From positions 1 through 59,328 of the forward strand of contig CALVNS010000015.1 of assembly GCA_944349855.1 (NCBI GenBank): a stretch of 59,328 nt of DNA. Reading direction: 5' to 3'. The number at the start of each line of letters is the position of its first letter. The first letter of the stretch is position 1. Below, in pieces: positions 1 to 46,202 of the stretch. The DNA is from an uncultured Eubacteriales bacterium (GTDB taxonomy: Bacteria; Bacillota; Clostridia; Christensenellales; Aristaeellaceae). The notes beneath the pieces are model-generated. The model was not told the origin of the DNA. It searched no databases and saw only the letters and a list, made by a program, of their open reading frames with translations. The position numbers were made by a program, and so were the translations under genes.

Positions 1-808
1 CGGTCCCGTCCTCCAGCTTCCAGGGCGGCACGCCCGGCGCCAGACACAGCGGCGCGGGCGGCGTCTCCTCCTCCGGCGGCTGCGCGGGCAGCGCCTCCCC
101 GGGCCGCAGCTGCGCCAGCTGCGCCGCGCTCAGCCGCGCCACGCCGACCGTATCCAGCAGCTCGCCGCGCGAGGCCGTCAGCGCACACCGTCCCGCGTGC
201 AAAAACGTCACGCTGTCGGCGATCTTGTCCAGGTCGCCGGTGATGTGGGTCGAAAAGAGCACGGCGTTTCGCTCATCCTCCACGAACTGCTGCAAGAGGT
301 CCAGCAGGTCGTCGCGCGCCACGGGATCCAGACCGCCGGTCGGTTCGTCCAGGATCAGCAGGCGCGGCTCCCGCGCGAGCGCGCAGGCGATGGACAGCTT
401 CATGCGCATGCCCTTGGAGTAATCCTTGACGGGCTTGCGCGCCTCCAGGTCAAAGCGTTTCAGCAGCGCGTCAAAGCGTTCGTCCCGCCAGTCCGGGCAC
501 AGCCCGCGCATCATGCGCGCGACATCCCGGGCGCACAGCACGGTGGGAAAGCAGCAGTCGTCGGGCACGTAGGCCACGTGCACGCGCGCGCGCCAGTCAT
601 CCCAGCTCACCGGACGGCCCAGCAGGGTCACGCTGCCCGCATCCGGGCGGATCAGCCCCAGCATCGCCTTGATCGTCGTGGTCTTGCCCGCGCCGTTCTC
701 GCCTACGAGGCCCGCAATGGTCCCCGCCTCCACCGAAAAGCCGACGTTCTCCAGCTCAAAGGCGTCGTAGCGCTTGCACAGCCCCTCGACGCGCACCGCT
801 TCCGTCAT
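1..808 (-). CDS. ABC transporter ATP-binding protein (C-terminus cut by window edge)
   Basis: Reads leftward and runs off position 1, so the C-terminus is missing. About 269 residues are visible: Walker A GENGAGKTTT near residue 36, signature YSKGMRMKLS near 130, Walker B LLILDEPTGGLDP near 150, and an H-loop in FSTHI. This is the CcmA/YtrB-like class of ATPase that pairs with separate membrane subunits, which would lie to the left. The start ATG (806-808) sits 3 bases after the stop of the GntR gene, with its ribosome-binding site GGAGGAGG inside that gene's 3' end, so the two are co-transcribed and probably coupled. Known YtrA-type operons encode exporters linked to envelope stress or antibiotics. 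The substrate here is unknown. Confidence 0.9.
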   Translation of the reverse strand, partial: MTEAVRVEGLCKRYDAFELENVGFSVEAGTIAGLVGENGAGKTTTIKAMLGLIRPDAGSVTLLGRPVSWDDWRARVHVAYVPDDCCFPTVLCARDVARMMRGLCPDWRDERFDALLKRFDLEARKPVKDYSKGMRMKLSIACALAREPRLLILDEPTGGLDPVARDDLLDLLQQFVEDERNAVLFSTHITGDLDKIADSVTFLHAGRCALTASRGELLDTVGVARLSAAQLAQLRPGEALPAQPPEEETPPAPLCLAPGVPPWKLEDGT

Positions 809-30295: not shown

Positions 30296-30381
30296 GCGCC
30301 ATTTCGCCGCCTTTTCTTCAAATTTATATAGGCCGGATCTGCGCCTTCCAAATCTCCCCTTGTTTATTTTTCTTTATGTGC

Positions 30382-30410
30382 TTGACGAGGCCGCAAGCCG
30401 GCAGTACAAT
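30382..30410 (+). promoter_or_regulatory. Promoter of the Mrp-like operon
   Basis: TTGACG (30382-30387), 17 bases, TACAAT (30405-30410), 30 bases before the first gene. Confidence 0.8.
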
Positions 30411-30440
30411 AACTTCGACAATCATAAAGGAGGCGTCGTC

Positions 30441-30905
30441 ATGTTCGTTGTGTTCTTTATGATGTGGGTGATCTTTAACGGACAGTGGACCACCGAAATT
30501 GCCCTGCTGGGGCTTTTTCTTTGCGCCGCGCTGTACCTGTTCGCCTGGAAGTTCATGGGGTACGGGCCCGCTCAGGACCTGCACGCGCTGCAGCGCCTGC
30601 CGCGTGCGCTCGCGTATCTGTGGACGCTCCTGGTGGAGATTTTCAAGGCCAACATCCACGTCATGCGCCTGATCCTCTCGCCTGAGTACGAGGTGGAGCC
30701 GGAACTGATCGAGTTCCACACAAAGCTCCGGACCGACCCCGCGCGCGCGGTGCTGGCCGACTCCATCACGCTCACGCCTGGCACGATCACCGTGCTGGTG
30801 GAGGGCGACCGTTTTCTCGTGCACGCCCTGGACAAGACGCTGGGCGACGGGGTCGATGATTCCGACTTCGAGCACCGCCTGCTGAAGATGGAGGGGAAGC
30901 GTTGA
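30441..30905 (+). CDS. mrpE: Mrp/Mnh antiporter subunit E (MbhA-like)
   Basis: 154 residues. An N-terminal membrane pair (FFMMWVIFNG, ALLGLFLCAALYLFAW) precedes the MNHE soluble part with FHTKLRTDPARAVLADSITLTPGTITV, the family's most conserved stretch (usually LTPGTvtv). The start ATG 30441 has AAAGGAGG ten bases upstream. MrpE is a small, structurally required subunit of the multi-subunit cation/proton antiporter. It is first in a ten-gene operon; the next ATG overlaps its stop (TGATG). Confidence 0.93.
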   Translation: MFVVFFMMWVIFNGQWTTEIALLGLFLCAALYLFAWKFMGYGPAQDLHALQRLPRALAYLWTLLVEIFKANIHVMRLILSPEYEVEPELIEFHTKLRTDPARAVLADSITLTPGTITVLVEGDRFLVHALDKTLGDGVDDSDFEHRLLKMEGKR

Positions 30906-31222
30906 TGGAAAACTATTATCAGGCGATGTTCAGCGTCGCTCTCGTGGTGTTGGGCATTCTGCTCTTCGCGTGCCTGATCCGCTCCATCCGCGGCCCGCGC
31001 ATCGCGGACCGGATCGTGGCGGTCAACATGGTCAGCACGATCGTGACGACCACCATCTGTGTGCTCGCCCTGGCGATGGGCGAGGGCTACCTGGTCGACA
31101 TCTCGCTGATCTACACGATGCTCGGCTTCCTGGCCGTGGTGTTGCTCACAAAGGTCTACATGGGCGTATACCTGGAGCGCAAGCAGAAGGAAGCGGAAAA
31201 GGGGGCGAAGACCGATGCTTGA
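30905..31222 (+). CDS. mrpF: Mrp/Mnh antiporter subunit F (MbhB-like)
   Basis: 105 residues with three membrane helices. The conserved core is IRGPRIADRIVAVNMVSTI at 28-46, where the Asp of the ADRI element is typical of MrpF, then DISLIYTMLGFLAVVLLTK. The start ATG 30905 shares a base with the mrpE stop; TTG 30902 is an in-frame alternative that would overlap further. A charged Lys/Glu tail closes the protein. The gene end overlaps mrpG by 8 bases. Confidence 0.93.
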   Translation: MENYYQAMFSVALVVLGILLFACLIRSIRGPRIADRIVAVNMVSTIVTTTICVLALAMGEGYLVDISLIYTMLGFLAVVLLTKVYMGVYLERKQKEAEKGAKTDA

Positions 31223-31535
31223 GTATCTGCGCTTTGCGCTGTCCGCCGCGCTGATGGCCTGCGGCCTGTTCGTGCTGATGGTCGGCGTCGTGGGCGTGTA
31301 CCGCTTCCGCTACGTCCTCAACCGCATGCATGCCGCGGCCATGAACGACACGCTGGGCATCCTCTTCGTGCTGCTCTCGCTCATCGTGGCCGAGGGCGCG
31401 ACATTCACCTCGCTCAAGCTGGTGCTGGTCATCCTGATGCTGTGGATCACCAGCCCCGTGTCCAGCCACCTGGTCTGCCGGCTGGAGATCACGACCAACG
31501 AGCACATCGAGCGCGAAATGGAGGTGCACAAGTAA
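31215..31535 (+). CDS. mrpG: Mrp/Mnh antiporter subunit G (MbhC-like)
   Basis: 106 residues and three helices. The family signature GVVGVYRFRYVLNRMHAAAMND sits between helices 1 and 2 at about residues 24-45 (the usual form is G-x-x-R-x-P-D-x-x-x-R-x-H), followed by LKLVLVILMLWITSPVSSHL. The start ATG 31215 lies within the 3' end of mrpF. The stop TAA overlaps the next ATG (TAATG), a sign of coupled translation of stoichiometric subunits. Confidence 0.92.
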   Translation: MLEYLRFALSAALMACGLFVLMVGVVGVYRFRYVLNRMHAAAMNDTLGILFVLLSLIVAEGATFTSLKLVLVILMLWITSPVSSHLVCRLEITTNEHIEREMEVHK

Positions 31536-31819
31536 TGGAATTTCTCAACGTGCTGCTGCTCCTGTTCATCCTCGTGTGCGCCGTCTCGGTGAGCCTGACC
31601 AAGAACCTGCTCACTTCGCTCATCATCTTCATGTCCCAGAGCCTGGCCATGTCGATCATCTGGATTCTGCTGCAATCGCCGGATCTGGCGATCACGGAGG
31701 CCGCGGTCGGCGCGGGCGTGACCAGCCTGCTCATGTTCGTCACGCTCAAGAAGATCCACGCGATCGACATACAAAAGGACGCGCAGGGAGGCAAGCAAAA
31801 TGGCAAAGCTGAGGAATGA
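31535..31819 (+). CDS. MbhD-like subunit (DUF4040; equals part of MrpA C-terminal region)
   Basis: 94 residues and three helices. The conserved segment DLAITEAAVGAGVTSLLMFVTLKK at about 50-73 contains the Glu typical of MbhD/DUF4040. In bacterial Mrp antiporters this segment is fused inside MrpA; here it is a stand-alone gene, as in archaeal membrane-bound hydrogenase and related complexes. The gene end overlaps the next ATG by 20 bases. Confidence 0.88.
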   Translation: MEFLNVLLLLFILVCAVSVSLTKNLLTSLIIFMSQSLAMSIIWILLQSPDLAITEAAVGAGVTSLLMFVTLKKIHAIDIQKDAQGGKQNGKAEE

Positions 31820-32822
31820 TTACGAAAACAGCTTCTTCGGCCGCCTGGACCGCTGGATCCGCGGCGGCGGCTCGCGCCTGGAGCAGGAGATGGAGCGCGA
31901 CCTGACCGAGCCCGCGCCGGAAAGCCCGCTACTCTCCAGCGAGAGCATCGGCGAGCGCGAGGACGCCATGTACGCCCGTCACGCAGAGGCGCACGCCAAG
32001 GAGCAGGCCATGTTCGACCGCCTCCACAACTGGTCGCGCACGCGCGGGCGCAAGCTGATGAACGCGCTGTATGCCCTGCTGTCCGTGGTGATCTGCCTTT
32101 CGGTGATCCTGGTGCTGCTGGAGACGGTCTCGGACCTGCCGCATTTCGGCGATGAGGAGAACCCGATCAACAACGAGGTGTCCGAGCGCTACATCGAAAA
32201 GGGTCTGCAGGAGACCGGCGCGGTCAACATCGTGACGGGCATGATCCTGGACTACCGTGCGTTCGATACCCTGGGCGAGAGCCACGTGCTGTTCATTGCC
32301 GCGTGCAGCGTGCTGATCCTGCTGCGCGTCTCGCAGGAACGGCAGGGCGGCGCGGCCTCGCAGGAAAAGCTCGACGCCGAGGCCAACGACCGCATCTACG
32401 AGCCCAAGAACGACATCATCCTGCAGGCATCCGCGCGCATCCTGGTACCGCTGATCCTGCTGTTCGGCATCTACATCATCCTCAATGGCCATCTATCGCC
32501 GGGCGGCGGCTTCTCGGGCGGCGCCGTGATGGGCGCGGGCCTGATCCTGTATCTGAATGCATTTGGCTTCAAGAAGACGGAGCGCTTCTTCACGTACAAG
32601 ACATTCAAGGTCATCTCCTTCTGCGCGCTGGCATTCTACGCGCTGTCCAAGAGTTACTCGTTCTTCACCGGCGCCAATCATCTGGAAAGCGGCATCCCGC
32701 TGGGCACGCCCGGCGCGATCCTCTCCTCCGGTCTGATCCTGCCGCTCAACATCGCGGTGGGCATGGTCGTGTGCTGCACGATGTACGCGTTCTATACGCT
32801 CTTCCGGAAGGGGGATATGTGA
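31800..32822 (+). CDS. Fused MbhE-like and MrpB/MnhB subunit
   Basis: 340 residues. Residues 1-85 are hydrophilic and charged with no recognised domain. Residues 86-180 match the MbhE/MrpA-tail pattern: a membrane helix, then an external loop ending VNIVTGMILDYRAFDTLGES, where the DYRAFDTLGE block is highly conserved. From about 200 on comes the MnhB domain (ILVPLILLFGIYIILNGHLS, GGGFSGGAVMGAGLIL). In most systems these are two chains or parts of different chains. The ATG 31800 lies inside the 3' end of the MbhD-like gene, and the stop overlaps mrpC (TGATG). Confidence 0.88.
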   Translation: MAKLRNDYENSFFGRLDRWIRGGGSRLEQEMERDLTEPAPESPLLSSESIGEREDAMYARHAEAHAKEQAMFDRLHNWSRTRGRKLMNALYALLSVVICLSVILVLLETVSDLPHFGDEENPINNEVSERYIEKGLQETGAVNIVTGMILDYRAFDTLGESHVLFIAACSVLILLRVSQERQGGAASQEKLDAEANDRIYEPKNDIILQASARILVPLILLFGIYIILNGHLSPGGGFSGGAVMGAGLILYLNAFGFKKTERFFTYKTFKVISFCALAFYALSKSYSFFTGANHLESGIPLGTPGAILSSGLILPLNIAVGMVVCCTMYAFYTLFRKGDM

Positions 32823-33196
32823 TGTTTGCGAACCTCCTGACCAACTATGAAGAGGCCGCGGCGATCATCCTGTTCGGCATCGGCTTTACGACGCTGCTGT
32901 TGCAGCGCAACATGATCAAGAAGATCATCGGCTTTTCGATGATGGACAGCGCCATCTACCTGTTTCTGGCGGCCAAGGGCTACATCGAGGGCCGCGGCGC
33001 GCCCATCGTGGTCAACGGCGTGCAGTCCGTCGAGGCCTACATCAACCCCATCCCCAGCGGTCTGGTGCTCACGGGCATCGTCGTGTCCGTCAGCGTGTCG
33101 GCGCTCATGCTGGCGCTGACGGTGCGTCTGTACCGGCGCTACCATTCGCTGGACATCGACGAGATCGCCACGATGGTGCGAAAGGAGGAACCGTAA
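32822..33196 (+). CDS. mrpC: Mrp/Mnh antiporter subunit C (NuoK-like)
   Basis: 124 residues and three helices, the NuoK/MnhC family. Features are the helix-1 block AAAIILFGIGFTTLLLQRNMIKKIIGFSMMDSAIYLF, split by the basic loop, and NPIPSGLVLTGIVVSVSVSALMLALTVRLYRRY. The dibasic and acidic residues around helix 3 (DIDEIATM) are typical. The start ATG 32822 overlaps the preceding stop. MrpC bridges the small subunits and the MrpD antiporter module. Confidence 0.93.
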   Translation: MFANLLTNYEEAAAIILFGIGFTTLLLQRNMIKKIIGFSMMDSAIYLFLAAKGYIEGRGAPIVVNGVQSVEAYINPIPSGLVLTGIVVSVSVSALMLALTVRLYRRYHSLDIDEIATMVRKEEP

Positions 33197-33197
33197 G

Positions 33198-34694
33198 GTG
33201 GAGCTGTGGCAGAACATACCGTTCTTTTCCATTCTGCTCTCGCTGGCGTCGGCATCCTTCACGTCGATCATGCCCGCCAGGGCGGCACGCCGCACGGCCA
33301 TCGTGGTCACGTCGGCCGTGCTGTGCATGTCGGCCGCGCTGATCGGCTTTACGACGGCCTACGGCGGCAGCTACACGTTCATGATGGGCCACTTCCCCGC
33401 GCCGTGGGGCAATGAGATCCGCGCGGGCGTGCTGGAGGCCGTGACGGCCTTCGCGTTCTCGCTGATCATGCTCATCTCCCTGCTCGGCGGCCTGACGAAG
33501 ATCGAGGAGCACGTGGAAGAAGGCAAGCAGAATCTGTACTTCATCATGTGCGAGCTGCTGCTCACGGCGCTGCTGGCGCAGGTCTACACCAACGACCTGT
33601 TCACCGCCTACGTATTCGTCGAAATCATGACCATTGCGGCCTGCTCGCTGATCACCTCGCGCATCAAGGGGCGCACGCTGTTCGCGGCCACGCGCTACAT
33701 GATCATGAACCTGCTGGGCAGCGGTCTGTTCCTGCTGGGTCTGACGCTGCTGTACGACCTGACGGGCCACCTGCTGATGGAGGACATCCGCGAGCAGGTG
33801 CGCATGCTCGCGCAGACGGGCCTGTACCATCAGCCGCTGACGGTCGTCATCGCGCTGATGTGCATCGGCCTGGCGATCAAGAGCGCGCTGTTCCCGTTCC
33901 ACACGTGGCTGCCGGACGCCTACGGCTATTCGACGCCGGCCTCCAGCGCGATGCTCTCCAGCCTGGTGAGCAAGGGCTACATCTTCCTGCTGATCAAGAT
34001 CATCTATCGCGTGATCGGGCTGGACGTCATCCGCGACTCGGGCATCGACAACGTGCTGCTGATCTTCGCGCTGGTCGGCATCGTGATGGGTTCGGTCTCG
34101 GCCATTCGCGAGCGCGACATCCGGCGCATGGTGTCCTACTCGTCCGTGGCGCAGATCGGCTACATCTTCATGGGCATCGGCCTGGGCACGGAGGCGGGCC
34201 TGGTGGCGGCGCTGTTCCACATCATCGCGCACGCGGCGGCCAAGTCCATGCTCTTCCTGTCCACCAGCGGCCTGTGCGAGGTCTCCGGCGAGCGCCGGCT
34301 GTTCCGCGACCTGCGCGGCAGCGCGTACCGCAACCCCATCGCGGGCATTGCGTTCGTGGTGGGCGCATTCTCGATGGTCGGCATCCCGTTCATGGGCGGA
34401 TTCATGTCCAAGCTGTGCTTTGCCTCCGCCGCGATGGAGACGGGCGGCGCGCGCATGTTGCTCGTGCTGCTGGTGCTGGCCATCAGCACGGCGCTGAACA
34501 CGCTGTACTTCCTGCGCACGGTCATCACGATCTACCGTCCGACCATCCGCGAATACCCGGAAGCGGCCAGCTTCCGCCCGCATGCGTCCTTCGTCGTGGC
34601 GATGGTCGCGGCCATTGCGGTGAATGTGGCGCTGGGCGTGTGCTCTCAGCCCGTGCTGAATGCGATCGCCGCGGGTCTCACGTGCTTCGGTTGA
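33198..34694 (+). CDS. mrpD: Mrp/Mnh antiporter subunit D (MbhH-like antiporter module)
   Basis: 498 residues and about 14 helices of the Proton_antipo_M family. Essential ion-path residues are visible: Glu in VFVEIMTIAACSLI near 142 (helix 5), Lys in IGLAIKSALFPFHTWLPDAY near 230 (helix 7), and a Lys/His-rich helix 8 and 12. It begins at GTG 33198, two bases after mrpC, with AAAGGAGGAACC upstream. By gene order it corresponds to MrpD/MbhH, the antiporter-like module contacting MrpC. Confidence 0.92.
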   Translation: MELWQNIPFFSILLSLASASFTSIMPARAARRTAIVVTSAVLCMSAALIGFTTAYGGSYTFMMGHFPAPWGNEIRAGVLEAVTAFAFSLIMLISLLGGLTKIEEHVEEGKQNLYFIMCELLLTALLAQVYTNDLFTAYVFVEIMTIAACSLITSRIKGRTLFAATRYMIMNLLGSGLFLLGLTLLYDLTGHLLMEDIREQVRMLAQTGLYHQPLTVVIALMCIGLAIKSALFPFHTWLPDAYGYSTPASSAMLSSLVSKGYIFLLIKIIYRVIGLDVIRDSGIDNVLLIFALVGIVMGSVSAIRERDIRRMVSYSSVAQIGYIFMGIGLGTEAGLVAALFHIIAHAAAKSMLFLSTSGLCEVSGERRLFRDLRGSAYRNPIAGIAFVVGAFSMVGIPFMGGFMSKLCFASAAMETGGARMLLVLLVLAISTALNTLYFLRTVITIYRPTIREYPEAASFRPHASFVVAMVAAIAVNVALGVCSQPVLNAIAAGLTCFG

Positions 34695-34719
34695 CCGGTG
34701 AGGAAGGAGTGTTGAATCC

Positions 34720-36198
34720 ATGCAAGGCGACCTTTCGCTGCTGCTGCCCGTGGCGGCGCCGCTTGCCGCCGGGCTGCTCGTGCTGTTTGTAAGGGCGTTT
34801 GACGAGCGCCGCACGCGCAACCTGTTCACGGGCGCCGCGCTGGCGCTGACGGTGCTATTTACGCTGCCGGCGCTGCTGCGCGGCCAGACGCAGCTCACGC
34901 TGTTCCATCTGACGGATACCATCCCCGTGGTGTTTCGCACGGACGGCGTGGCGCGCCTGTTCCTCGTGCTGATCGCCTTCGTCTGGGCGATGGTGGGTTT
35001 CTACTCGTTTGAGTACATGGCGCACGAACAGCATGAGCGGCGCTTCTACGGCTTTTATCTGCTGACGCTTGCGGCGCTGATGGGCCTGTCGCTGTCGGGC
35101 ACGCTCGTGACGCTGTACATGTTCTACGAGGCGATGACGCTGCTCTCGCTGCCGCTCGTGCTGCACACGCAGACGCGCGAGGCCGTGGCGGCCGGCGTCA
35201 AGTACCTGCTCTACTCGGTGTTCGGCGCGTCGCTGGCGCTGCTGGGCATCTTCTTCCTGCAGTTCTACTGCACGAGCCTGTCCTTCACGCCCGGCGGCAC
35301 GCTGGACGCGCTGAAGGTGGCCGGCCATGAGCCGCTGCTGCTGGGCATCGTGGCGCTTTCGCTGCTGGGCTTTGGCGTCAAGGCGGGCATGTTCCCGCTG
35401 CACGCCTGGCTGCCCACGGCGCACCCGGTGGCGCCCTCCCCCGCCAGCGCAGTGCTGTCTGGCATCATCACCAAGGCGGGCGTGCTGGGCATCGTGCGCG
35501 TGCTGTTCTTCCTGGTGGGGCCGGACTTCCTGCGCGGCACATGGGTGCAGGCGCTGTTCCTGGGCCTGACGGTGCTGACGGTGTTCCTGGGCTCGATGCT
35601 GGCGTTCAAGGAGACGCTGCTCAAAAAGCGCCTGGCCTACTCCACGGTCAGCCAGGTGTCCTATGTGCTCTTCGGCCTGTTCACGCTCACGCCGGTGGGC
35701 TTCGTGGGCGCGCTGCTGCACGTGGTGTGCCACGCGCTGATCAAGAACACGCTGTTCATGGGCGCGGGCGCGATCATCGAAAAGACGGGCAAGACGCGCG
35801 TGGACGAGCTCGTCGGCATCGGCAAGCGGATGCCCACCGTCATGTGGTGCTTCACGCTGTGCGCGGTCGCGCTGATCGGCATTCCGCCCACGGGCGGCTT
35901 TGTGAGCAAGTGGTTCCTGGCCGAGGGCGCGCTCTCCATGGGCGAGACCGTCTATGCCTGGCTGGGGCCGGTGGTGCTGCTGGTGAGCGCGCTGCTCACG
36001 GCGGGCTACCTGCTGCCCATCTCGACGCGCGGCTTCTTCCCCGGCGAGCACGCCGACCTGGCGGCGCTTTCCAAGGCCGAACCCACGGCGCTGATGACCG
36101 TGCCGATGCTCGTGCTGGCGGCGCTGTGCGTGCTGCTGGGCATGTTCCCGGGTGCGCTGACGTCCTTCCTGCAGGCCATTGCAGGCGGCGTCCTGTGA
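34720..36198 (+). CDS. Additional antiporter-like subunit 1 (NuoL/NuoM/HyfB family)
   Basis: 492 residues, about 14 helices, Proton_antipo_M family. Helix-5 Glu in MFYEAMTLLSLPLV near 138, helix-7 Lys in FGVKAGMFPLHAWLPTAHP near 218, PASAVLSGIITKAG with helix-8 Lys, and a C-terminal Lys in VSKWFLAEGA near 390. All channel residues expected of an active module are present. ATG 34720 follows mrpD by 25 bases behind AAGGAGTG. It may take the place of the MrpA N-terminal antiporter domain, which has no separate gene here; this is inference. Confidence 0.88.
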   Translation: MQGDLSLLLPVAAPLAAGLLVLFVRAFDERRTRNLFTGAALALTVLFTLPALLRGQTQLTLFHLTDTIPVVFRTDGVARLFLVLIAFVWAMVGFYSFEYMAHEQHERRFYGFYLLTLAALMGLSLSGTLVTLYMFYEAMTLLSLPLVLHTQTREAVAAGVKYLLYSVFGASLALLGIFFLQFYCTSLSFTPGGTLDALKVAGHEPLLLGIVALSLLGFGVKAGMFPLHAWLPTAHPVAPSPASAVLSGIITKAGVLGIVRVLFFLVGPDFLRGTWVQALFLGLTVLTVFLGSMLAFKETLLKKRLAYSTVSQVSYVLFGLFTLTPVGFVGALLHVVCHALIKNTLFMGAGAIIEKTGKTRVDELVGIGKRMPTVMWCFTLCAVALIGIPPTGGFVSKWFLAEGALSMGETVYAWLGPVVLLVSALLTAGYLLPISTRGFFPGEHADLAALSKAEPTALMTVPMLVLAALCVLLGMFPGALTSFLQAIAGGVL

Positions 36199-36220
36199 GC
36201 GAAAGAGAGGAGGCATACGC

Positions 36221-37696
36221 ATGACATTGATGCTCTTGACATTCCTGCTCCCGCTCGCGGGCGGCGCGGCGCTGCCGCTGCTGAAGCTGGACGACCGGCG
36301 CCGGCGCTCGATCTACGTACAGGTGGTGACGACGGCCACGTCCGTGCTGGCGCTCTGCCTGCTCATCGCGCGTCCGACGGAGTCGCTGACGCTGCTGCAC
36401 ATGACGGACAGCCTGGCGCTGACGCTGCGCCTGGACGGCGCGGGCAGCATCTTCATGGGTCTGATCGCGTTCCTGTGGCCGCTGGCCACGCTCTATGCGT
36501 TTGAGTACATGGCTCACGAGGAGCACGAGACGCCCTTCTTCACCTTTTACACGATGACCTACGGCGTGACGCTGCTCATCACGATGGCGGGCAATCTGTT
36601 CACGCTCTACGTCTTCTTCGAGTGCCTGACGCTGATCACCCTGCCGCTGGTCACGCACAAGATGGACGCCAAGTCCGCGCTGGCGGGCCGCCGCTACCTG
36701 GTCTATTCGATCAGCGGCGCGGCGCTGGCCTTCATCGGCCTGGTGTTCATCATGACGTTCGGCCAGAGCGACACGGCCTTCCGCTTCGGCGGGGTGCTGG
36801 CGCAGGAGGCGATCGCCGGGCGCGAGAACCTGCTGCTGCTGGTGTTCGTGCTCTCGTTCATCGGCTTTGCCACGAAGGCTGCGATGTTCCCCATGCACGG
36901 CTGGCTGCCGCTGGCCTCCGTGGCCCCCACGCCCGTGACGGCGCTGCTGCACGCGGTGGCGGTGGTCAACACCGGTGCGTTCGCCTGCATCCGCCTGATC
37001 TACTACAGCTTCGGCACGGATCTGCTTGCCGGCACCTGGGCGCAGGCGATTGCGGTGCTGCTGCCGGCGCTGACGATCGTCTACGGTTCGGTGATGGCCG
37101 TGCGCGAGCAGCACTTCAAGCGCCGCCTGGCCTACTCGACGGTGAGCAACCTGAGCTACATCCTGCTGGGCGCGGCGCTGATGACGCCCGCCGGCCTGAC
37201 GGGCAGCCTGTCGCACCTGGTCTTCCATGGCCTGATGAAGATCGTGCTGTTCTACTGCGCGGGCGCTGTGCTCGTGCGCACGGGCGAGGAGTACGTGCAG
37301 GATCTGCGCGGTTCGTTCCGCGTGATGCCCTTCACGATGGGCGTGTATACGCTCTCCGCGCTGGCGCTGGTGGGCGTGCCGCCGCTGGCGGGCTTCATCA
37401 GCAAGTGGAACCTGCTGACTGCGGCGGTGGAGAGCGGCTTCACGCCGGGATATCTGGGCGCGGCGGCGCTGATCGTCTCCGCGATCCTGACGGCGGTATA
37501 CCTGCTCTACGTCGTGGTGATGGCGGCGTTCTCCCCGCTGTCCGACGGCGGCATGGCCGCCTTCCGGGAGAATCGCGACCCGAGCTGGCTGATGAAGGCG
37601 CCGCTCGTCGTGCTGTGCGCGGCGATCGTGCTGCTGGGCCTGTGCTCGACGCCGCTCGTCCATTACTTTCAGGCCGTCGCCGGCGGCCTGCTGTGA
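36221..37696 (+). CDS. Additional antiporter-like subunit 2 (NuoL/NuoM/HyfB family)
   Basis: 491 residues, about 14 helices. It parallels the previous subunit: helix-5 Glu in VFFECLTLITLPLV near 138, helix-7 Lys in FATKAAMFPMHGWLPLA near 222, then PTPVTALLHAVAVVNTGAF, where the usual helix-8 Lys is replaced by Asn (VVNTG), as in some HyfB/MrpA members, and Lys in ISKWNLLTAA near 403. The start ATG 36221 has GAGAGGAGG nine bases upstream; the upstream in-frame ATG (36179) is inside the preceding gene. High similarity in layout suggests gene duplication. Confidence 0.88.
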   Translation: MTLMLLTFLLPLAGGAALPLLKLDDRRRRSIYVQVVTTATSVLALCLLIARPTESLTLLHMTDSLALTLRLDGAGSIFMGLIAFLWPLATLYAFEYMAHEEHETPFFTFYTMTYGVTLLITMAGNLFTLYVFFECLTLITLPLVTHKMDAKSALAGRRYLVYSISGAALAFIGLVFIMTFGQSDTAFRFGGVLAQEAIAGRENLLLLVFVLSFIGFATKAAMFPMHGWLPLASVAPTPVTALLHAVAVVNTGAFACIRLIYYSFGTDLLAGTWAQAIAVLLPALTIVYGSVMAVREQHFKRRLAYSTVSNLSYILLGAALMTPAGLTGSLSHLVFHGLMKIVLFYCAGAVLVRTGEEYVQDLRGSFRVMPFTMGVYTLSALALVGVPPLAGFISKWNLLTAAVESGFTPGYLGAAALIVSAILTAVYLLYVVVMAAFSPLSDGGMAAFRENRDPSWLMKAPLVVLCAAIVLLGLCSTPLVHYFQAVAGGLL

Positions 37697-37711
37697 GGAG
37701 GGGGTCTGACC

Positions 37712-39784
37712 GTGAATCTGTTGCTTCCCGTGCTCGTCTTCTTCCCGATGGCGGGCGCCGTCGCCTCCTACCTGTGCGGACGGCGCGATAAGCGGCTGCG
37801 CGACACGCTGTGCTGCGCGCTGACGGCCGTTGAATTCGCGCTGAGCGCGGCGCTGCTGCTGGCCGTCGTGCGCGGCGGCGAACGCGCCTTCGCGCTGGAG
37901 GGCTTCTGTGCGATGGGCCTGACGCTGCGTGCGGACGGCCTGCGCGCGCTGTACACGGCGATCGCGTCGTTCATGTTCCTGATGACGACGCTCTTCTCGC
38001 CGGAGTACTTCCGCCACTATCACAACCGCAACCGCTACTACCTGTTCACCCTGCTGACGCTGGGCGCGACGGTGGGCGTGTTCCTCTCCGACGACCTGTT
38101 CACGACGTTCGTCTTCTTTGAGGTGATGTCGCTCGCGTCCTATCCCTGGGTCGCGCACGATGAGCGCGCCGAGTCCCTGCGCGCCGCGGAGACGTACCTG
38201 TACATCGCGGTCATCGGCGGCCTGGTGACGCTGATGGGCCTGTTCCTGCTCTACGCGCAGCTGGGCACGCTGTCCTTTGCGGGCATGCGCGCGGCCGCCG
38301 CGGCGATGGAAAGCCCCGCTGCCCTGTACCTGCCCGGCGCGCTGACGCTCTTCGGCTTTGGCGTGAAGGCCGGCATGTTCCCGGCGCACGTGTGGCTGCC
38401 CAAGGCGCACGCGGTAGCCCCGGCCCCGGCGAGCGCGCTGCTGTCGGGCATCCTGACCAAGACGGGCGTGTTCGGCATCCTGGTCGTCTCGTCCAACCTG
38501 TTCCTGCACGATGCGAACTTTGGCGACGTGATCCTCTTCTTCGGCTGCGTGACGATGGTGCTGGGCGCGGTGCTGGCGCTGTTCTCCACGAACCTCAAGC
38601 GCACGCTGGCCTGCTCTTCGATGTCGCAGATCGGCTTCATCCTGGTGGGCGTGGGCCTGCAGGGACTGCTGGGCGCGCACAACGCCCTGGCGGTGCAGGG
38701 CACGGCGCTGCACATGGTGAACCACTCGCTGATCAAGCTGACGCTCTTCCTGTGCGCCGGCGTGGTCTACATGAACGCGCACAAGCTCAACCTCAACGAG
38801 ATCCGCGGCTTCGGGCGCGGCAAGCCCCTGCTGCACTTTGCGTTCCTGATGGGCGCGCTGAGCATCGCGGGCGTGCCGCTCTTTGGCGGATACATCAGCA
38901 AGTCGCTGCTGCATGAGGGCATCGTCGAGTACATCGCGCTGCTGGGCGAGGCCGGACAGCCTGCGGGCCTGTACCGCTTCGTGGAGATCCTGTTCCTGAC
39001 CAGCGGCGGCATGACGCTGGCGTACATGACCAAGCTGTACATCGCGCTCTTCTGGGAGAAGAACGCGGCCTGCCAGGCCGAGTACGACGCGCTCAACGGT
39101 CGGTACATGAACCGCCTGTCCGCCTTCGCGCTGGTCGGCGCGGCGGTGCTGCTGCCGCTGCTGGGCGTGCAGCCGAACGTGTTCATGACGCGCATCGCCT
39201 CGGTGATGCAGGGCTTCATGTACGGCCAGTCGCCCGAGCACGCCGTGGCCTACTTCTCCGCCGCCAACCTGACCGGTGCGGCGCAGTCGCTGTGCATTGG
39301 CGCCGTGCTCTATGCGCTCATCCGCTGGCTGCTCATGCAGCGGGAAGGCGGCGTGCGCGTCTACGCGGACCGCTGGCCGGCCAAGCTCGACCTGGAGGAG
39401 GGCCTCTATCGCCCGCTGCTGCTGCGCTGGCTGCCCAATCCCCTGGTGATCGCGCTCACGCGTGCGCTGGACGAGCTGACCGACTCGATCGTCATCGCCC
39501 TGCGCCACACGCTGCTGGGCCAGACGAAGAAGCACGGCCCCGTGCCCGTCGGCACGCATTTGACCTATGCGCTGGGCACCGTGCTCAACGCGATCGTGGT
39601 GCTGCTCAACCACACGTTCTACCACCGCCGGCCGATCAAGACGGACTTCACCGTCGCGCTGGCCGCCGGCCTGGACGAGCTGCGCAGCAGCGGACGGCTC
39701 ATCAGCGGCAGCATGTCGTTTGGCCTGTTGCTGCTGTGCATCGGCATGTACCTGACGTTCGTGTACCTGATGACGCTCTCCTGA
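37712..39784 (+). CDS. Additional antiporter-like subunit 3, long form (NuoL/HyfB-like)
   Basis: 690 residues: the antiporter core plus a C-terminal extension of about 200 residues. The core has helix-5 Glu in VFFEVMSLASYPWV, helix-7 Lys in FGVKAGMFPAHVWLPKAHA near 224, PASALLSGILTKTG with helix-8 Lys, and YISKSLLHEG near 396. The extension holds more membrane helices separated by basic and amphipathic stretches, and ends FGLLLLCIGMYLTFVYLMTL. It could act like the lateral helix of NuoL. It starts at GTG 37712 behind GGAGGGGG, 15 bases after the previous stop. Last gene of the operon. Confidence 0.88.
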   Translation: MNLLLPVLVFFPMAGAVASYLCGRRDKRLRDTLCCALTAVEFALSAALLLAVVRGGERAFALEGFCAMGLTLRADGLRALYTAIASFMFLMTTLFSPEYFRHYHNRNRYYLFTLLTLGATVGVFLSDDLFTTFVFFEVMSLASYPWVAHDERAESLRAAETYLYIAVIGGLVTLMGLFLLYAQLGTLSFAGMRAAAAAMESPAALYLPGALTLFGFGVKAGMFPAHVWLPKAHAVAPAPASALLSGILTKTGVFGILVVSSNLFLHDANFGDVILFFGCVTMVLGAVLALFSTNLKRTLACSSMSQIGFILVGVGLQGLLGAHNALAVQGTALHMVNHSLIKLTLFLCAGVVYMNAHKLNLNEIRGFGRGKPLLHFAFLMGALSIAGVPLFGGYISKSLLHEGIVEYIALLGEAGQPAGLYRFVEILFLTSGGMTLAYMTKLYIALFWEKNAACQAEYDALNGRYMNRLSAFALVGAAVLLPLLGVQPNVFMTRIASVMQGFMYGQSPEHAVAYFSAANLTGAAQSLCIGAVLYALIRWLLMQREGGVRVYADRWPAKLDLEEGLYRPLLLRWLPNPLVIALTRALDELTDSIVIALRHTLLGQTKKHGPVPVGTHLTYALGTVLNAIVVLLNHTFYHRRPIKTDFTVALAAGLDELRSSGRLISGSMSFGLLLLCIGMYLTFVYLMTLS

Positions 39785-39955: not shown

Positions 39956-40798
39956 ATGAAGGGAAAAAAGAGGGCGGTCGGCGTCGCGGCGCTGTTGTTG
40001 GCGGCGTGCCTGGCGCTGATCTTCCTGACCGGCGGCGGAGGCGGACAGGAAGAGTCCATCCAGGCGGTCATGCGCGACGCCGTGCTGCACGAGGAAAACC
40101 ACGTCGCCCTGTTGGGCATGGAGGTCAATCCCTCGGTCGCCTCCGGTCTGACGGTGACGGGTCTGCTGCTGCTTGTGGCCGCGCTGATCCGCATCTTCGC
40201 CATTCCGCGCTTTCGGTACGTGCCGGGCAGGTTTCAGCTCGTGGTGGAGGAGCTGGTCTCATTCTTTCGCAACCTGGCCAAAAGCAACAGCCCCCACCGC
40301 AACGGCTTCCTGGGCGCGTACATCTTCGGCGCAGGCGTGTACATCTTCTTCGGCACGCTCTTTGAGCTCTTTGGCGTGCAGGCGATGACGACGCACGGCA
40401 CGTCCATCGCGCTGCCCGCGCCGCTGTCGGACATCAATGCGGCGATCGCGATGGGCTTTCTGAGCTACTTCGTCATCCTCTCCGGCGGATTGACGAGCAA
40501 TGGCCTGCGCGGCGTCGGGAAGACGCTCAAGGACTTCTCGTTGCCCATCTCGATGAGCTTCCGCCTGTTCGGCGCGCTGCTCAGCGGCCTGCTGGTGACG
40601 GAGCTGGTCTACTACTCGCTGGCGCTCAGCTTCGTGCTGCCGGTGATCGTCGCCGTGCTGTTCACGCTGTTGCACGCGCTGATTCAGACGTACGTTCTGA
40701 CGATGCTGACCTCGGTCTTCTATGGAGAGGTCACCGAACCGCACGCACCCAAGCCCCCCAAAAACGCCAACAAGGCCGCGCATGCGGCCGCAAAATGA
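39956..40798 (+). CDS. atpB: F1Fo-ATP synthase subunit a
   Basis: 280 residues. The stator membrane subunit that forms the ion half-channels against the c-ring. An N-terminal hydrophobic segment with a Gly-rich loop precedes the fold. The essential Arg is in ISMSFRLFGALLSGLLVTELVYY near residue 200 (Ala replaces the Asn of the common RLFGN), and the last helix region is LHALIQTYVLTMLTSVF. I take ATG 39956, since the earlier in-frame ATG overlaps the promoter. The C-terminus carries an unusual Pro/Lys/Ala tail. First gene of the order a, c, b, alpha, gamma, beta, epsilon. Confidence 0.95.
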   Translation: MKGKKRAVGVAALLLAACLALIFLTGGGGGQEESIQAVMRDAVLHEENHVALLGMEVNPSVASGLTVTGLLLLVAALIRIFAIPRFRYVPGRFQLVVEELVSFFRNLAKSNSPHRNGFLGAYIFGAGVYIFFGTLFELFGVQAMTTHGTSIALPAPLSDINAAIAMGFLSYFVILSGGLTSNGLRGVGKTLKDFSLPISMSFRLFGALLSGLLVTELVYYSLALSFVLPVIVAVLFTLLHALIQTYVLTMLTSVFYGEVTEPHAPKPPKNANKAAHAAAK

Positions 40799-40818: not shown

Positions 40819-41172
40819 ATGAAAAAGTTCACGAAACGGTTTACCGCCCTGCTGCTTGTATGCCTGACCGCCACGCTGTTGATGAGCGCCTTTGCCTGCC
40901 CCGCCCTCGCCGAAGAGGTGCAGGAGGCGGCCCCCGCCGCTGAGATGACCACGTCCGCCAAGGCGCTGAGCGCCGCCATTGCCATCGGCCTGGCCGCCGG
41001 CCTGGGCGCGCTCGCCATGGGCACGGCCATCGCCAAGTCCGCCGAGGCCATCTCGCGCCAGCCTGAGGCCGAGGGCAGCATCCGCACGACGCTGATGCTC
41101 GGCCTGGTCTTCGTCGAAACCGCAATCATCTACGCTTTGATCGTCGCAATCCTGGTCATCTTCGTGCTGTAA
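40819..41172 (+). CDS. atpE: F1Fo-ATP synthase subunit c with N-terminal extension
   Basis: 117 residues, against about 70-90 in most bacteria. Residues 1-32 look like a cleavable signal peptide (MKKFTKRF, hydrophobic stretch, PALA before EEV). The mature part is the hairpin: helix 1 from about 48, polar loop SRQPEAEG, helix 2 with the ion-binding Glu in VFVETAIIYALI. Glu is followed by Thr, with Tyr five residues later, as in sodium-type rings, but the helix-1 Gln of the sodium signature is Met here. The coupling ion is therefore ambiguous. The start has GGAGGAG nine bases upstream. Confidence 0.93.
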   Translation: MKKFTKRFTALLLVCLTATLLMSAFACPALAEEVQEAAPAAEMTTSAKALSAAIAIGLAAGLGALAMGTAIAKSAEAISRQPEAEGSIRTTLMLGLVFVETAIIYALIVAILVIFVL

Positions 41173-41223: not shown

Positions 41224-41727
41224 ATGCCCTTGAACATCGACTTTCAACAGATCTTTCTGCATCTGTTCAACTTCATCATCCTCGCGCTGGGCCTCTACCT
41301 GCTGCTCTACCGCCCGGTCGTTGCGTTCATGGACAAGCGCCAAGCGCACTACGAGGAGCTGGACCGCCAGGCGGCCGAGAAGGACGCGGCTGCGCAACAG
41401 AAGCTGGACGCGTATGACGCGCGCCTGAAGGCTGCGGACGAGGAGATTCAGCGTCGGAACGCCGACGCCAACCGCCAACTCGAGGCCAAGCGGCAGGAGC
41501 GCCTGCAGCGCGCCCAGGAGCAGGCCGACAAGCTGGTCGAGGAGGCCCGCAAGGCCGCGGAGCGCGAGCGCGCCGCCATGCTGGAGGGCGCCAAAAAGGA
41601 CATCGCCGAGATGGTCGTCAGCGCGGCCGGCAAGCTCGCCGACAAGGAGATCGATCCCGCAGCGGACCGCGCGCTGTATGACCGCTTCCTGGAGGAAGCG
41701 CAGGCGGCGCAGGAGGACAGGCCATGA
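41224..41727 (+). CDS. atpF: F1Fo-ATP synthase subunit b
   Basis: 167 residues. One N-terminal helix ([18 protein letters not shown] at 12-29) anchors a long charged coiled coil (about 35-145, rich in Ala, Glu, Lys, Arg), the peripheral stalk. Length and layout are ordinary, with no fused delta domain as in mycobacterial b-delta. Its stop overlaps the alpha ATG (ATGA, 41724-41727), so there is no room for atpH between b and alpha, where it normally sits. Confidence 0.95.
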
Positions 41728-43493
41728 GCGACATGCGCAAAGCGGTCACGGCGGCGCGCCTTGTGTGCGTGACGCCGCCCGATCCCGGTCAGGAGGCGCG
41801 CATCCGCGCGTTCCTGGCAAGCAAGTACGCCGAGCCGGTGTCTTTGGAGATCGCCGTCGATCCCTCGTTGCGCAGCGGCTTTCGCCTGAGCGTGGGCAGC
41901 GACGTATACGACTGGAGCGCCGACGGGCGCCTGGAGCAACTGCGCGAGCAGGTCGAGAGGGTGGCCGGAGCTGCCCGCGGCGAAGACAATCTCATTCCGC
42001 TGCTGCGCGCCGGCATTTCGGAGTTCCGGCTGCTGGCCGAGCGCAGCGAGGTCGGCACGGTGCTGTCCGTGGGCGACGGCATCGCCGTCGTCGAGGGGCT
42101 CGAACATGCCGCCTATGGCGAGATCCTGCTCTTTGAGTGCGGCGTAAAGGGCATGGTGCAGGACCTGCGCCGCGGCGAGACGGGCTGCATCCTCTTTGGC
42201 GACGACGCGCAGATCGAGGCCGGCAGCCGCGTGGCGCGCACCGGCAAGACCGCCGGCGTGCCCGTGGGCGACGGATTTCTCGGCCGCGTGGTGGATGCGC
42301 TGGGCGCGCCCATCGACGGCGGCCCGGACATCGCGCCGGAGGGATTCCGGCCCATCGAAGAGCCCGCGCCCGGCATCATCGACCGCCAGAGCGTGAACGA
42401 GCCGCTGGAGACGGGCCTGCTGGCCATCGACTCGATGTTCCCCATCGGCCGCGGCCAGCGCGAGCTCATCATCGGCGACCGGCAGACGGGCAAGACGGCC
42501 ATCGCGCTGGACACGATCCTCAACCAGAAGGGCAAAAACGTCGTGTGCGTGTATGTGGCCATCGGCCAGAAGGCCAGCTCCGTGGCCCAGCTGGTGGAGA
42601 CGCTGCGCCGCCGCGAGGCGCTGCCCTACTGTGTCGTCGTCAGTGCAACGGCAGGCGAGCCGGACACGCTGCAATATATCGCGCCCTATGCGGGCTGCGC
42701 GATCGCCGAGCACTTCATGCACAAGGGGCGCGACGTGCTGATCGTCTATGACGACCTGTCCAAGCACGCCATCGCCTACCGCGCCATGAGCCTGCTACTG
42801 GAGCGCGCGCCGGGCCGCGAGGCGTACCCCGGCGACGTGTTCTACCTCCACTCCCGCCTGCTGGAGCGCTCCGCACACCTGAGCGACGCGCTGGGCGGCG
42901 GCAGCATGACCGCGCTGCCCATCGTCGAGACGCAGGCGGGCGACGTATCCGCCTACATCCCCACGAACATCATCTCCATCACGGACGGCCAGATCTTCCT
43001 GGAGAGCGACCTGTTCTTCGCCGGCCAGCGCCCTGCGGTCAACGTGGGCCTGTCCGTCTCGCGCGTGGGCGGCGCGGCGCAGACCAAGGCGATGAAGCGC
43101 GCCGCCGGCACGCTGCGCCTGGACCTGGCGCAGTACCGCGAGATGGAGGTCTTCACGCAGTTCTCCAGCGACCTGGACGAGGGCACGCGGGCCCAGCTGC
43201 GCTACGGCCAGGCGCTGATGCGCATGCTGCGCCAGCGCCAGTATGCCCCGCTGAGCATGCACCAGCAGGTGATCGTGCTCGTGTGCGCGATGGACCGCCT
43301 GCTCTGCCGCGTGCCGGAGCAGCAGGTGCCCGCGCTGCGCGACGCGCTGCTGGAGCACTTTGAGCAGGCGCATGCGGACGTGTGCGCGCAGCTGGAGGAG
43401 GAGCGGGCGCTGCCGGATGACCTGCGGGCGCGGATTCTCGACATCGCCCGCGCGTTCACCGACGCGAACGCCGCCCGCTTTGGGGGGAAATGA
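41724..43493 (+). CDS. atpA: F1Fo-ATP synthase alpha subunit with fused delta (OSCP) C-terminal-like domain
   Basis: 589 residues, about 85-90 longer than a usual alpha. Residues about 5-80 match the C-terminal domain of delta/OSCP: a first strand and helix ([20 protein letters not shown]), then [21 protein letters not shown], then [17 protein letters not shown], equivalent to the conserved delta ending with a Gly-rich strand, a D-x-S motif and R-L-E-x-L. The six-helix N-terminal half of delta is absent. Alpha proper starts near residue 90 ([24 protein letters not shown]) and has P-loop [10 protein letters not shown] near 252, [12 protein letters not shown] and [12 protein letters not shown]. 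Alpha occurs three times in F1 while delta occurs once, so the fusion raises a stoichiometry question. Confidence 0.93.
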
Positions 43494-43496
43494 CGC

Positions 43497-45781
<2,285 letters not shown>

Positions 45782-45785
45782 GCGC

Positions 45786-46202
45786 ATGGAGAGCTTTCAG
45801 GTGGACATCCTGGCCGCGGACCACACGTTCTACTCCGGTCCGTGCGTGTCGCTGATCGTGCCCACGCCGCACGGCATGTACGGCGTGATGGCGCGCCACT
45901 CGAACATGATCGCCTCCGTCGCGCCGGGCGAGCTCAAGTATACGCTGCCTGGCGAGGCGCCGCGCATCGCCGCGGTATCCTCCGGGCTGATCAAGGTCGA
46001 GGACGGGCGGGCGCTCATCCTGGTGGAGACGGCCGAGCGGCCGGAGGAGATCGACCGCAACCGCGCCCAGCGCACGGCGGATGCCGCGCGCGAGGCGATG
46101 CTGCAAAAGATGAGCCGGCGCGAATACCTCCAGACCCAGGCGCAGCTGGCGCGCACGATCATTCGCCTGCGCGTCAAGAGCCACGCCGAGCGGCTGGACT
46201 GA
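45786..46202 (+). CDS. atpC: F1Fo-ATP synthase epsilon subunit
   Basis: 138 residues. N-terminal beta-sandwich (SFQVDILAADHTFYSGPC, PTPHGMYGVMARHSNMIASV) and a C-terminal helical hairpin (RNRAQRTADAAREAM, then RREYLQTQAQLARTIIRLRV) that can inhibit rotation. ATG 45786 is 4 bases after the beta stop, and the ribosome-binding site is GAGGGGGCG inside beta. Last gene of the operon, followed by a strong hairpin. Confidence 0.95.
   Translation: MESFQVDILAADHTFYSGPCVSLIVPTPHGMYGVMARHSNMIASVAPGELKYTLPGEAPRIAAVSSGLIKVEDGRALILVETAERPEEIDRNRAQRTADAAREAMLQKMSRREYLQTQAQLARTIIRLRVKSHAERLD

What the first reader, a model, noticed from the sequence alone, without database searches (positions are those of the whole stretch)
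41724..43493. ATP synthase alpha subunit fused to a delta/OSCP C-terminal-like domain; separate delta gene absent
The operon runs a, c, b, alpha, gamma, beta, epsilon, with b and alpha overlapping by 4 bases, so atpH is missing from its normal place. Alpha carries about 85-90 extra N-terminal residues whose order of elements (strand-helix, then V-D-P-S-L-x-x-G-F, G-S-D, Y-D-W-S, G-R-L-E-Q-L) matches the C-terminal half of delta. In known enzymes, delta's N-terminal half caps the alpha N-termini and its C-terminal half binds subunit b. Here the cap is gone and the b-binding part is tied directly to alpha. F1 has three alphas but normally one delta, so three b-binding domains would surround the crown. 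This suggests a differently built peripheral stalk.
Basis: partly seen in the sequence, partly recalled or inferred. Interest (0 to 1): 0.87.

Follow-up and report, generated by a model that had tools for sequence, protein, structure and literature searches.

The report
Delta tail fused to ATP-synthase alpha
In this bacterium the part of the ATP synthase that ties the motor head to its outer stalk is built into the alpha subunit, of which each enzyme has three, instead of being one separate protein, an arrangement that engineers have shown can give the enzyme up to three stalks and let it make ATP from a weaker ion gradient.

Summary
Confirmed. The only F-type alpha gene found in the genome (41724-43493, 589 aa) starts with the C-terminal, b-binding half of delta (Pfam OSCP positions 99-171; 39-44 bits, cut-off 22.3). 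No other OSCP match exists in the 92.8% complete assembly. The gene begins behind AGGAGG, its tail is under purifying selection, and no conserved internal start would free a plain alpha. The domain order, delta's N-terminal cap missing, is that of an engineered Bacillus PS3 fusion (PDB 9JC1; [quoted passage not shown] Those authors already noted natural fusions in Acidaminococcus fermentans and two UniProt entries, so the window is a new member of a known kind. New here is the scale: of 297 genomes drawn from the window's order, 84 have OSCP tails in alpha-sized frames, 24 a full-length delta. The fused state is not one clade (AU p 3.6e-57). Relatives show whole-delta-alpha, free tails, tandem tails (with duplicated b ends) and a membrane b-tail-alpha triple fusion. 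Most likely each alpha is a stalk dock and more than one stalk is carried. Stalk number is inferred, not shown; a single-stalk enzyme with idle docks stays possible.

The parts
41724..43493 (+). delta-C-terminal-domain/alpha fusion, 589 aa, the only F-type alpha found in the genome
   Evidence: (TIGR00962 722 bits, cut-off 484.45)
41736..41951 (+). delta/OSCP C-terminal (b-binding) domain, residues 5-76
   Evidence: PF00213 positions 99-171; dN/dS 0.34 and 0.24 for residues 1-80
41952..42038 (+). linker and the kept alpha N-terminal helix (about residues 77-105); such helices are where delta's cap domain binds in ordinary enzymes
   Evidence: binding from PMC12229609 section 6
41711..41716 (+). 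Shine-Dalgarno AGGAGG of the fusion gene, inside the end of b
   Evidence: sequence
41224..41727 (+). subunit b, 167 aa, ordinary length, ends in a YDRFL-type helix motif; no OSCP match
40819..41172 (+). subunit c with a signal-peptide-like N-terminal extension (start inferred)
39956..40798 (+). subunit a
43497..44390 (+). subunit gamma
44384..45781 (+). subunit beta
45786..46202 (+). subunit epsilon

Best explanation
The gene encodes a natural delta-deltaN/alpha fusion of an F1Fo ATP synthase. Shown by sequence: the b-binding C-terminal domain of delta is joined to the N-terminus of the only F-type alpha found, the delta cap domain is gone, b keeps a C-terminal end of the delta-binding type, and no separate delta or plain F-type alpha is encoded in the assembly. 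Inferred: since F1 holds three alphas, it carries three identical docks for the b2 stalk, and the missing cap leaves the three-fold axis free. Inferred by analogy with the engineered Bacillus PS3 enzyme: more than one b2 stalk, each with its own a subunit, is built in, so more ions pass per ATP and ATP can be made at a weaker ion gradient.
For: OSCP match to residues 5-76 above the curated cut-off. One OSCP match and one F-type alpha in the genome; the other PF00006 matches are beta, a V/A-type pair and Rho, so all three alphas should be fused. Shine-Dalgarno before 41724, and dN/dS 0.34 and 0.24 for the delta part against L002 and L066. No conserved internal start: a start codon with at least 4 Shine-Dalgarno bases lies in the junction of 9 of 45 tail-alpha, 0 of 2 double-tail, 0 of 4 whole-delta-alpha and 1 of 3 b-tail-alpha genes, against 21 of 28 free-tail and 27 of 33 canonical alphas; the window's own weak GTG is absent from its near relative L002. 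The fusion chain of 9JC1 aligns from window 32-564 to chain 27-560, without a gap at the junction (structure assigned to the paper). Ueno et al. built that arrangement and report up to three stalks and a subunits, a and b 2.2 and 1.8 times the wild type by SDS-PAGE, and H+/ATP 5.8 against 3.0. The b end motif is found in 48 of 62 tail-alpha b subunits, 12.5 expected by shuffling. In 21 of 22 genomes of the window clade the tail-alpha is the only OSCP protein at E<=0.001. In b-tail-alpha relatives each alpha chain carries its own membrane helix, and in two double-tail relatives the b end is duplicated too.
Against: Nothing measured shows more than one stalk in a natural enzyme. L118 and L119 have a duplicated b end but one tail. 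The b motif was worded after seeing some sequences and is found in only 14 of 30 free-tail, 1 of 4 whole-delta-alpha and 0 of 2 b-tail-alpha separate b subunits. The linker and helix (residues 80-110) are less constrained against L066 (dN/dS 0.68). A plain alpha could lie in the missing part of the assembly or arise by proteolysis. In the engineered enzyme cryo-EM found 1.26 stalks per molecule.
Confidence: 0.6

Rival explanations
1. Single-stalk enzyme: all three alphas carry a dock, but only one b2 and one a are incorporated, because a, c-ring geometry or supply limits them; two docks stay idle or only shield the crown. The fusion is then a way of tethering delta, with no change of ion/ATP ratio.
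For: The operon has one a and one b gene, as in ordinary operons. Whole-delta-alpha fusions exist that keep the cap. The engineered enzyme in cryo-EM showed 1.26 stalks per molecule on average, which its authors put down to loss on the grid (PMC12229609, passage).
Against: In the engineered PS3 enzyme the fusion with cap loss, in an epsilon-truncated background, was enough for two stalks on average by SDS-PAGE and a doubled H+/ATP ratio. b-tail-alpha relatives carry a membrane helix on every alpha chain.
Confidence: 0.3
2. Mixed alpha: internal translation start or proteolysis gives some plain alpha, so that F1 holds one fused and two plain alphas, a covalent version of the ordinary one-delta enzyme.
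For: The window has an in-frame GTG 31 residues before the alpha anchor with AGGT upstream; 9 of 45 tail-alpha genes have some start codon with at least 4 Shine-Dalgarno bases in the junction.
Against: The signal is absent in L002, whose alpha core agrees with the window's at 477 of 479 residues, and is far rarer than at the alpha starts of unfused operons (21 of 28 and 27 of 33).
Confidence: 0.08
3. Chance similarity or assembly artefact joining two genes.
For: The OSCP match alone is of moderate strength (39-44 bits).
Against: The same fusion stands in L002 and G025 and in dozens of other assemblies, some of 1-3 contigs, with purifying selection on the tail.
Confidence: 0.01

Closest known systems
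Engineered delta-deltaN/alpha fusion FoF1 of Bacillus PS3 (Ueno et al. 2025, PMC12229609; PDB 9JC1)
   Same: delta C-terminal domain joined to the alpha N-terminus, delta N-terminal domain missing, no separate delta; alignment of 533 window residues with no gap at the junction (one single-residue gap, in the delta part)
   Different: natural; epsilon keeps its C-terminal domain (PF00401 hit), which the engineered enzyme lacks; stalk number unknown
Natural fusion noted by the same authors in Acidaminococcus fermentans and UniProt G4Q3K6, A0A1I2C5T3 (Discussion section read; sequences not fetched)
   Same: delta-alpha fusion; the delta N-terminal domain is said to be missing in A. fermentans, with similar features in the two others
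   Different: no sequence comparison made here; the Discussion names only these cases
N-ATPase (alternate F1F0, TIGR03321/03324)
   Same: separate delta absent (PMC5706428 passage); a delta-like C-terminal domain sits on another subunit: TIGR03321 positions 190-246 match the window tail
   Different: there the domain sits on b, not alpha; the window alpha scores 614 against a TIGR03324 cut-off of 750.5, and the gene order differs from the beta-epsilon-a-c-b-alpha-gamma given in PMC5709465
b-delta fusion of Mycobacterium and Gordonia (PMC5709465 passages; PDB 7jg5 chain d)
   Same: delta joined to a neighbour subunit; best PDB match of the tail together with PS3 delta
   Different: delta joined to b, not to alpha

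Membership tests
F-type ATP synthase alpha (TIGR00962) | score above the curated cut-off | tested here: met
   722 bits, cut-off 484.45, residues 89-580
F-type ATP synthase alpha (TIGR00962) | operon with a, c, b, gamma, beta, epsilon | tested here: met
Canonical delta/OSCP (PF00213) | C-terminal b-binding domain | tested here: met
   positions 99-171, 39.1 bits, cut-off 22.3
Canonical delta/OSCP (PF00213) | N-terminal cap domain, free-standing protein | tested here: not met
   the only OSCP match in the genome at E up to 10 covers positions 95-171, inside the alpha frame
delta-deltaN/alpha fused FoF1 (Ueno type) | delta C-terminal domain fused to the alpha N-terminus, delta N-terminal domain missing | tested here: met
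delta-deltaN/alpha fused FoF1 (Ueno type) | more than one peripheral stalk and a subunit | not testable with these tools
   needs the purified complex
delta-deltaN/alpha fused FoF1 (Ueno type) | raised H+/ATP ratio | not testable with these tools
   needs a proteoliposome assay
N-ATPase | alpha above the TIGR03324 cut-off and delta-like domain on b | tested here: not met
   614 bits against cut-off 750.5; b is 167 aa without OSCP match
b-delta fusion (mycobacterial type) | delta joined to b | tested here: not met
   b carries no OSCP match; ATP-synt_B is its only match over a cut-off

The most novel reading that the evidence does not exclude
Natural multi-stalk, multi-a ATP synthases are not a curiosity but the commonest F-type enzyme of a large order of Clostridia, reached independently several times by joining delta's tail to alpha, and in one family taken so far (b-tail-alpha in one chain) that three membrane-anchored stalks are obligatory. 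These organisms would then run ATP synthesis at a pmf at which ordinary enzymes cannot.
Probability: 0.45. Interest if true: 0.9.

Novelty: new member of a known kind. Interest (0 to 1): 0.72.

Why it matters
The rule that an F-type ATP synthase has one delta, one stalk and one a subunit ties its ion/ATP ratio to the c-ring size. A gene that puts a stalk dock on every alpha removes the structural reason for that rule, and an engineered copy of the arrangement doubled the ratio. Finding it in many genomes, apparently reached along more than one route and with further variants, makes the open question of whether nature uses several stalks directly testable, and offers natural sequences for ATP synthesis at low gradients.

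Tried and rejected
Glycomyces and Verrucomicrobia hits (15 of 16 loci; 14 of these 15 match both the delta part and alpha, L016 the alpha side only): rejected as fusions, because their delta part and alpha lie in separate reading frames; tblastn had joined neighbours. OSCP matches that run through a stop codon looked like cap remnants; in the fetched cases the match to a delta profile of my own, inside alpha or the free frame, covers the tail only, and no b frame matched. Idea that b and tail copy numbers are strictly coupled: not upheld (L118, L119 have two b ends and one tail). Idea that the cap is always lost with fusion: not upheld (L132, L133, L134, L140). Search for b-tail-alpha relatives in viral contigs: nothing. 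Literature: the searches showed me no other report of natural delta-alpha fusions than PMC12229609. They cover the open PMC library only, with listings cut at 10-20 papers, and I saw only titles and abstract starts of the listed papers, except PMC12229609 (outline, sections 6, 7, 13, 29, passages), PMC5709465 and PMC5706428 (passages).

Selection and dropped rows: the 123 loci typed and the 20 were chosen by me for variety, so their proportions are not frequencies. L130 and L137 gave no alpha and were left out. L020 and L069 are one operon counted twice among the 33 canonical, L036 is masked at its alpha start, and L044 is cut by a contig end; of the 14 Glycomyces loci only L004 entered the typing. 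The start-codon scan used the stretch from the end of the tail in fused genes and a fixed stretch of about 28 codons in unfused ones. Trees: 107 rows and 125 of 143; near-copies, short rows and, in the second, the N-ATPase and L002 were taken out by hand. Both are quick IQ-TREE runs with SH-aLRT support only; a FastTree run of 122 rows came first.

Full report
What is there. The window holds an F1Fo operon a, c, b, alpha, gamma, beta, epsilon between 39956 and 46202. The alpha frame, 41724-43493, is 589 aa long. Its residues 89-580 are an ordinary alpha (TIGR00962, 722 bits, cut-off 484.45). Residues 5-76 match the C-terminal half of delta/OSCP (PF00213 positions 99-171 of 172; 39.1 bits, 43.7 for residues 1-95 alone, cut-off 22.3). 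The alpha N-terminal helix is kept behind a short linker. The start codon overlaps the stop of b and has AGGAGG seven bases upstream. The delta part (residues 1-80) evolves under constraint: dN/dS 0.34 against L002 and 0.24 against L066. The linker with the helix (80-110) gives 0.12 and 0.68.

No delta elsewhere. A search of the own genome (completeness 92.76) with OSCP at E up to 10 gives this match only. ATP-synt_ab matches are the fused alpha, its beta, a V/A-type pair on another contig and Rho. All three alphas of F1 should therefore carry the tail, unless a plain alpha lies in the missing few percent.

Internal start. I asked whether a plain alpha could be made from the same gene. Start codons with at least four Shine-Dalgarno bases occur in the junction of 9 of 45 tail-alpha genes, 0 of 2 double-tail, 0 of 4 whole-delta-alpha and 1 of 3 b-tail-alpha genes, against 21 of 28 alphas next to a free tail and 27 of 33 canonical ones (one canonical operon is in twice, one is masked there). 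The window has a weak GTG candidate; its near relative L002 has none.

How widespread. In a draw of 297 genomes of the same order, 145 have an OSCP match at E<=0.001. Sorted from that listing, the window's own genome included (recount): 24 have a full-length delta; 84 have tail-only matches inside frames of at least 550 aa; 38 have tail-only matches in short frames (35 of 71-136 aa, and 3 listed as 236-249 aa because the match was read through a stop, their own frames being 72, 80 and 72 aa); and one is N-ATPase-like (G339, L127). Two genomes (G025, G322) have both a full delta and a tail-alpha. One of the short ones (G305) stands near the end of a short contig and could be cut. I read 39 of the 84; in all 39 the tail lies inside the alpha frame. 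In the family draw (60 genomes) full-length delta is commoner: 27 full-length and one split by contig ends, against 17 tail-only (own genome and G025 included). In the class draw (171 of 291 genomes with a match) and the phylum draw (247 of 299) the listed matches are mostly full-length; both listings were cut, so I make no count there. Of 40 genomes picked for weak scores, 20 were fetched: 18 tail-alpha and 2 free tail. The fusion is thus not confined to the order. The nearest named relative is Candidatus Onthenecus intestinigallinarum (Clostridia); the GTDB order name Christensenellales is recalled, not tested.

Variants. Typing of 123 chosen loci: 45 tail-alpha, 2 double-tail-alpha (L071, L072), 3 b-tail-alpha (L075-L077), 4 whole-delta-alpha (L132, L133, L140, L134), 28 free tails, 33 canonical, 4 long delta, 3 with the tail in 231-302 aa frames, 1 N-ATPase. 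In b-tail-alpha an N-terminal hydrophobic helix with b-like sequence precedes the tail: ATP-synt_B 33.9 bits in L075 (cut-off 28), only 15.0 in L076, none listed in L077; profile comparison of the three with b subunits gives probability 94.6, E 7e-8 over 43 columns. Tail-only matches in frames of 741-791 aa occur in 7 of 61 genomes searched around that family; three of the seven were read, the others are judged by frame length. In L071 and L072 the b end is duplicated alongside the double tail; in L118 and L119 b is duplicated but the tail is single.

History. On trees of the alpha core, with the tail columns left out, fused and separate states need 14 changes among 107 rows and 17 among 125. 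Well supported branches alone force at least 7 and 6 changes of the tail-alpha label. Holding all 50 fused rows of the first tree together is rejected (lnL 739 worse, p 3.6e-57). Gains and losses cannot be told apart by these counts. The window belongs to a set of 22 rows, all fused, from 13 families (support 95). Its nearest relative outside is L134, which fuses a whole delta to alpha (support 90, 98). That suggests fusion first and cap loss later in this line. Elsewhere free tails and tail-alphas are mixed, which suggests cap loss first and fusion later. In 21 of the 22 genomes the tail-alpha is the only OSCP protein at E<=0.001; G025, of the window's genus, also has a canonical operon (L069).

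Mechanism. Ueno et al. (PMC12229609; sections 6, 7, 13 and 29 and passages read) argued that delta's N-terminal domain on the three-fold axis limits the enzyme to one stalk. They deleted delta residues 2-104 and fused the rest to alpha in Bacillus PS3. They report up to three stalks and three a subunits, two on average by SDS-PAGE, H+/ATP 5.8 against 3.0, and an equilibrium pmf of 68 against 133 mV. The fusion chain of their entry 9JC1 aligns with the window protein from 32-564 to 27-560, without a gap at the junction. The b subunits of tail-alpha operons keep a C-terminal motif of the type seen at canonical b ends (48 of 62, 12.5 expected; canonical 30 of 32, 8.7 expected). The motif was worded after seeing part of the data, and it is weaker in free-tail operons (14 of 30, 6.5 expected) and whole-delta-alpha operons (1 of 4). 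I conclude that each alpha is a dock for b (well supported, not measured), and that more than one stalk is carried (inferred by analogy).

What speaks against. No measurement on a natural enzyme exists here. Whole-delta-alpha fusions show that fusion does not need cap loss, and it is unclear how three caps would fit. In the engineered enzyme cryo-EM found 1.26 stalks on average. A single-stalk enzyme with idle docks is therefore a serious rival.

Prior knowledge. The Discussion of PMC12229609 already names a natural fusion without the delta N-terminal domain in Acidaminococcus fermentans and two UniProt entries with similar features. The window is thus a new member of a known, uncharacterised kind. 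I found no mention of order-wide spread, free tails, double tails or b-tail-alpha in what my searches showed, which cover the open PMC library only.

Noticed in passing
window 30360-39784: A Mrp-type Na+/H+ antiporter cluster (MrpE, MrpF, MrpG, MrpB/MbhE-like and four MrpD/NuoL/M-like frames) lies directly upstream of the ATP synthase operon; NuoL/M-like frames are also upstream in the same-genus genome G025 (L066).
   Followed up: partly
window 40819-41172: Subunit c has a signal-peptide-like N-terminal extension; many window-clade loci also have long c frames (110-180 aa, stop to stop), against 89 aa in the canonical operon L069.
   Followed up: no
window 41224-43490 against L002: Synonymous divergence is 0.26 in b and in the delta part but 0.07 in the alpha core, which hints at recombination with a breakpoint near the junction.
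   Followed up: no
L075 3430-5667, L076 3095-5401, L077 2843-5215: Single frames of 746-791 aa that join a b-like membrane helix, the delta tail and alpha, with a second b gene upstream; tail matches in frames of 741-791 aa in 7 of 61 genomes searched.
   Followed up: partly
L132 3656-5692, L133 2146-4182, L140 3809-5845, L134 3771-5843: Whole delta, cap included, fused to alpha; predicts three caps per F1, which is hard to place.
   Followed up: partly
L071 5557-6360, L072 5348-6049, L118 3020-3796, L119 4226-5017: b subunits with a duplicated C-terminal end (two YDxFL-type motifs).
   Followed up: partly
L145 (frame of 270 aa): A free delta with the cap and two C-terminal domains in tandem.
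   Followed up: no
G000 contig C35 (L049, L050): The genome also encodes V/A-type ATP synthase subunits A and B, so it probably has two rotary ATPases.
   Followed up: no
L003 4797-5204: A Verrucomicrobia MAG has a delta frame of only 136 aa matching the tail part, perhaps another cap loss outside the phylum.
   Followed up: no
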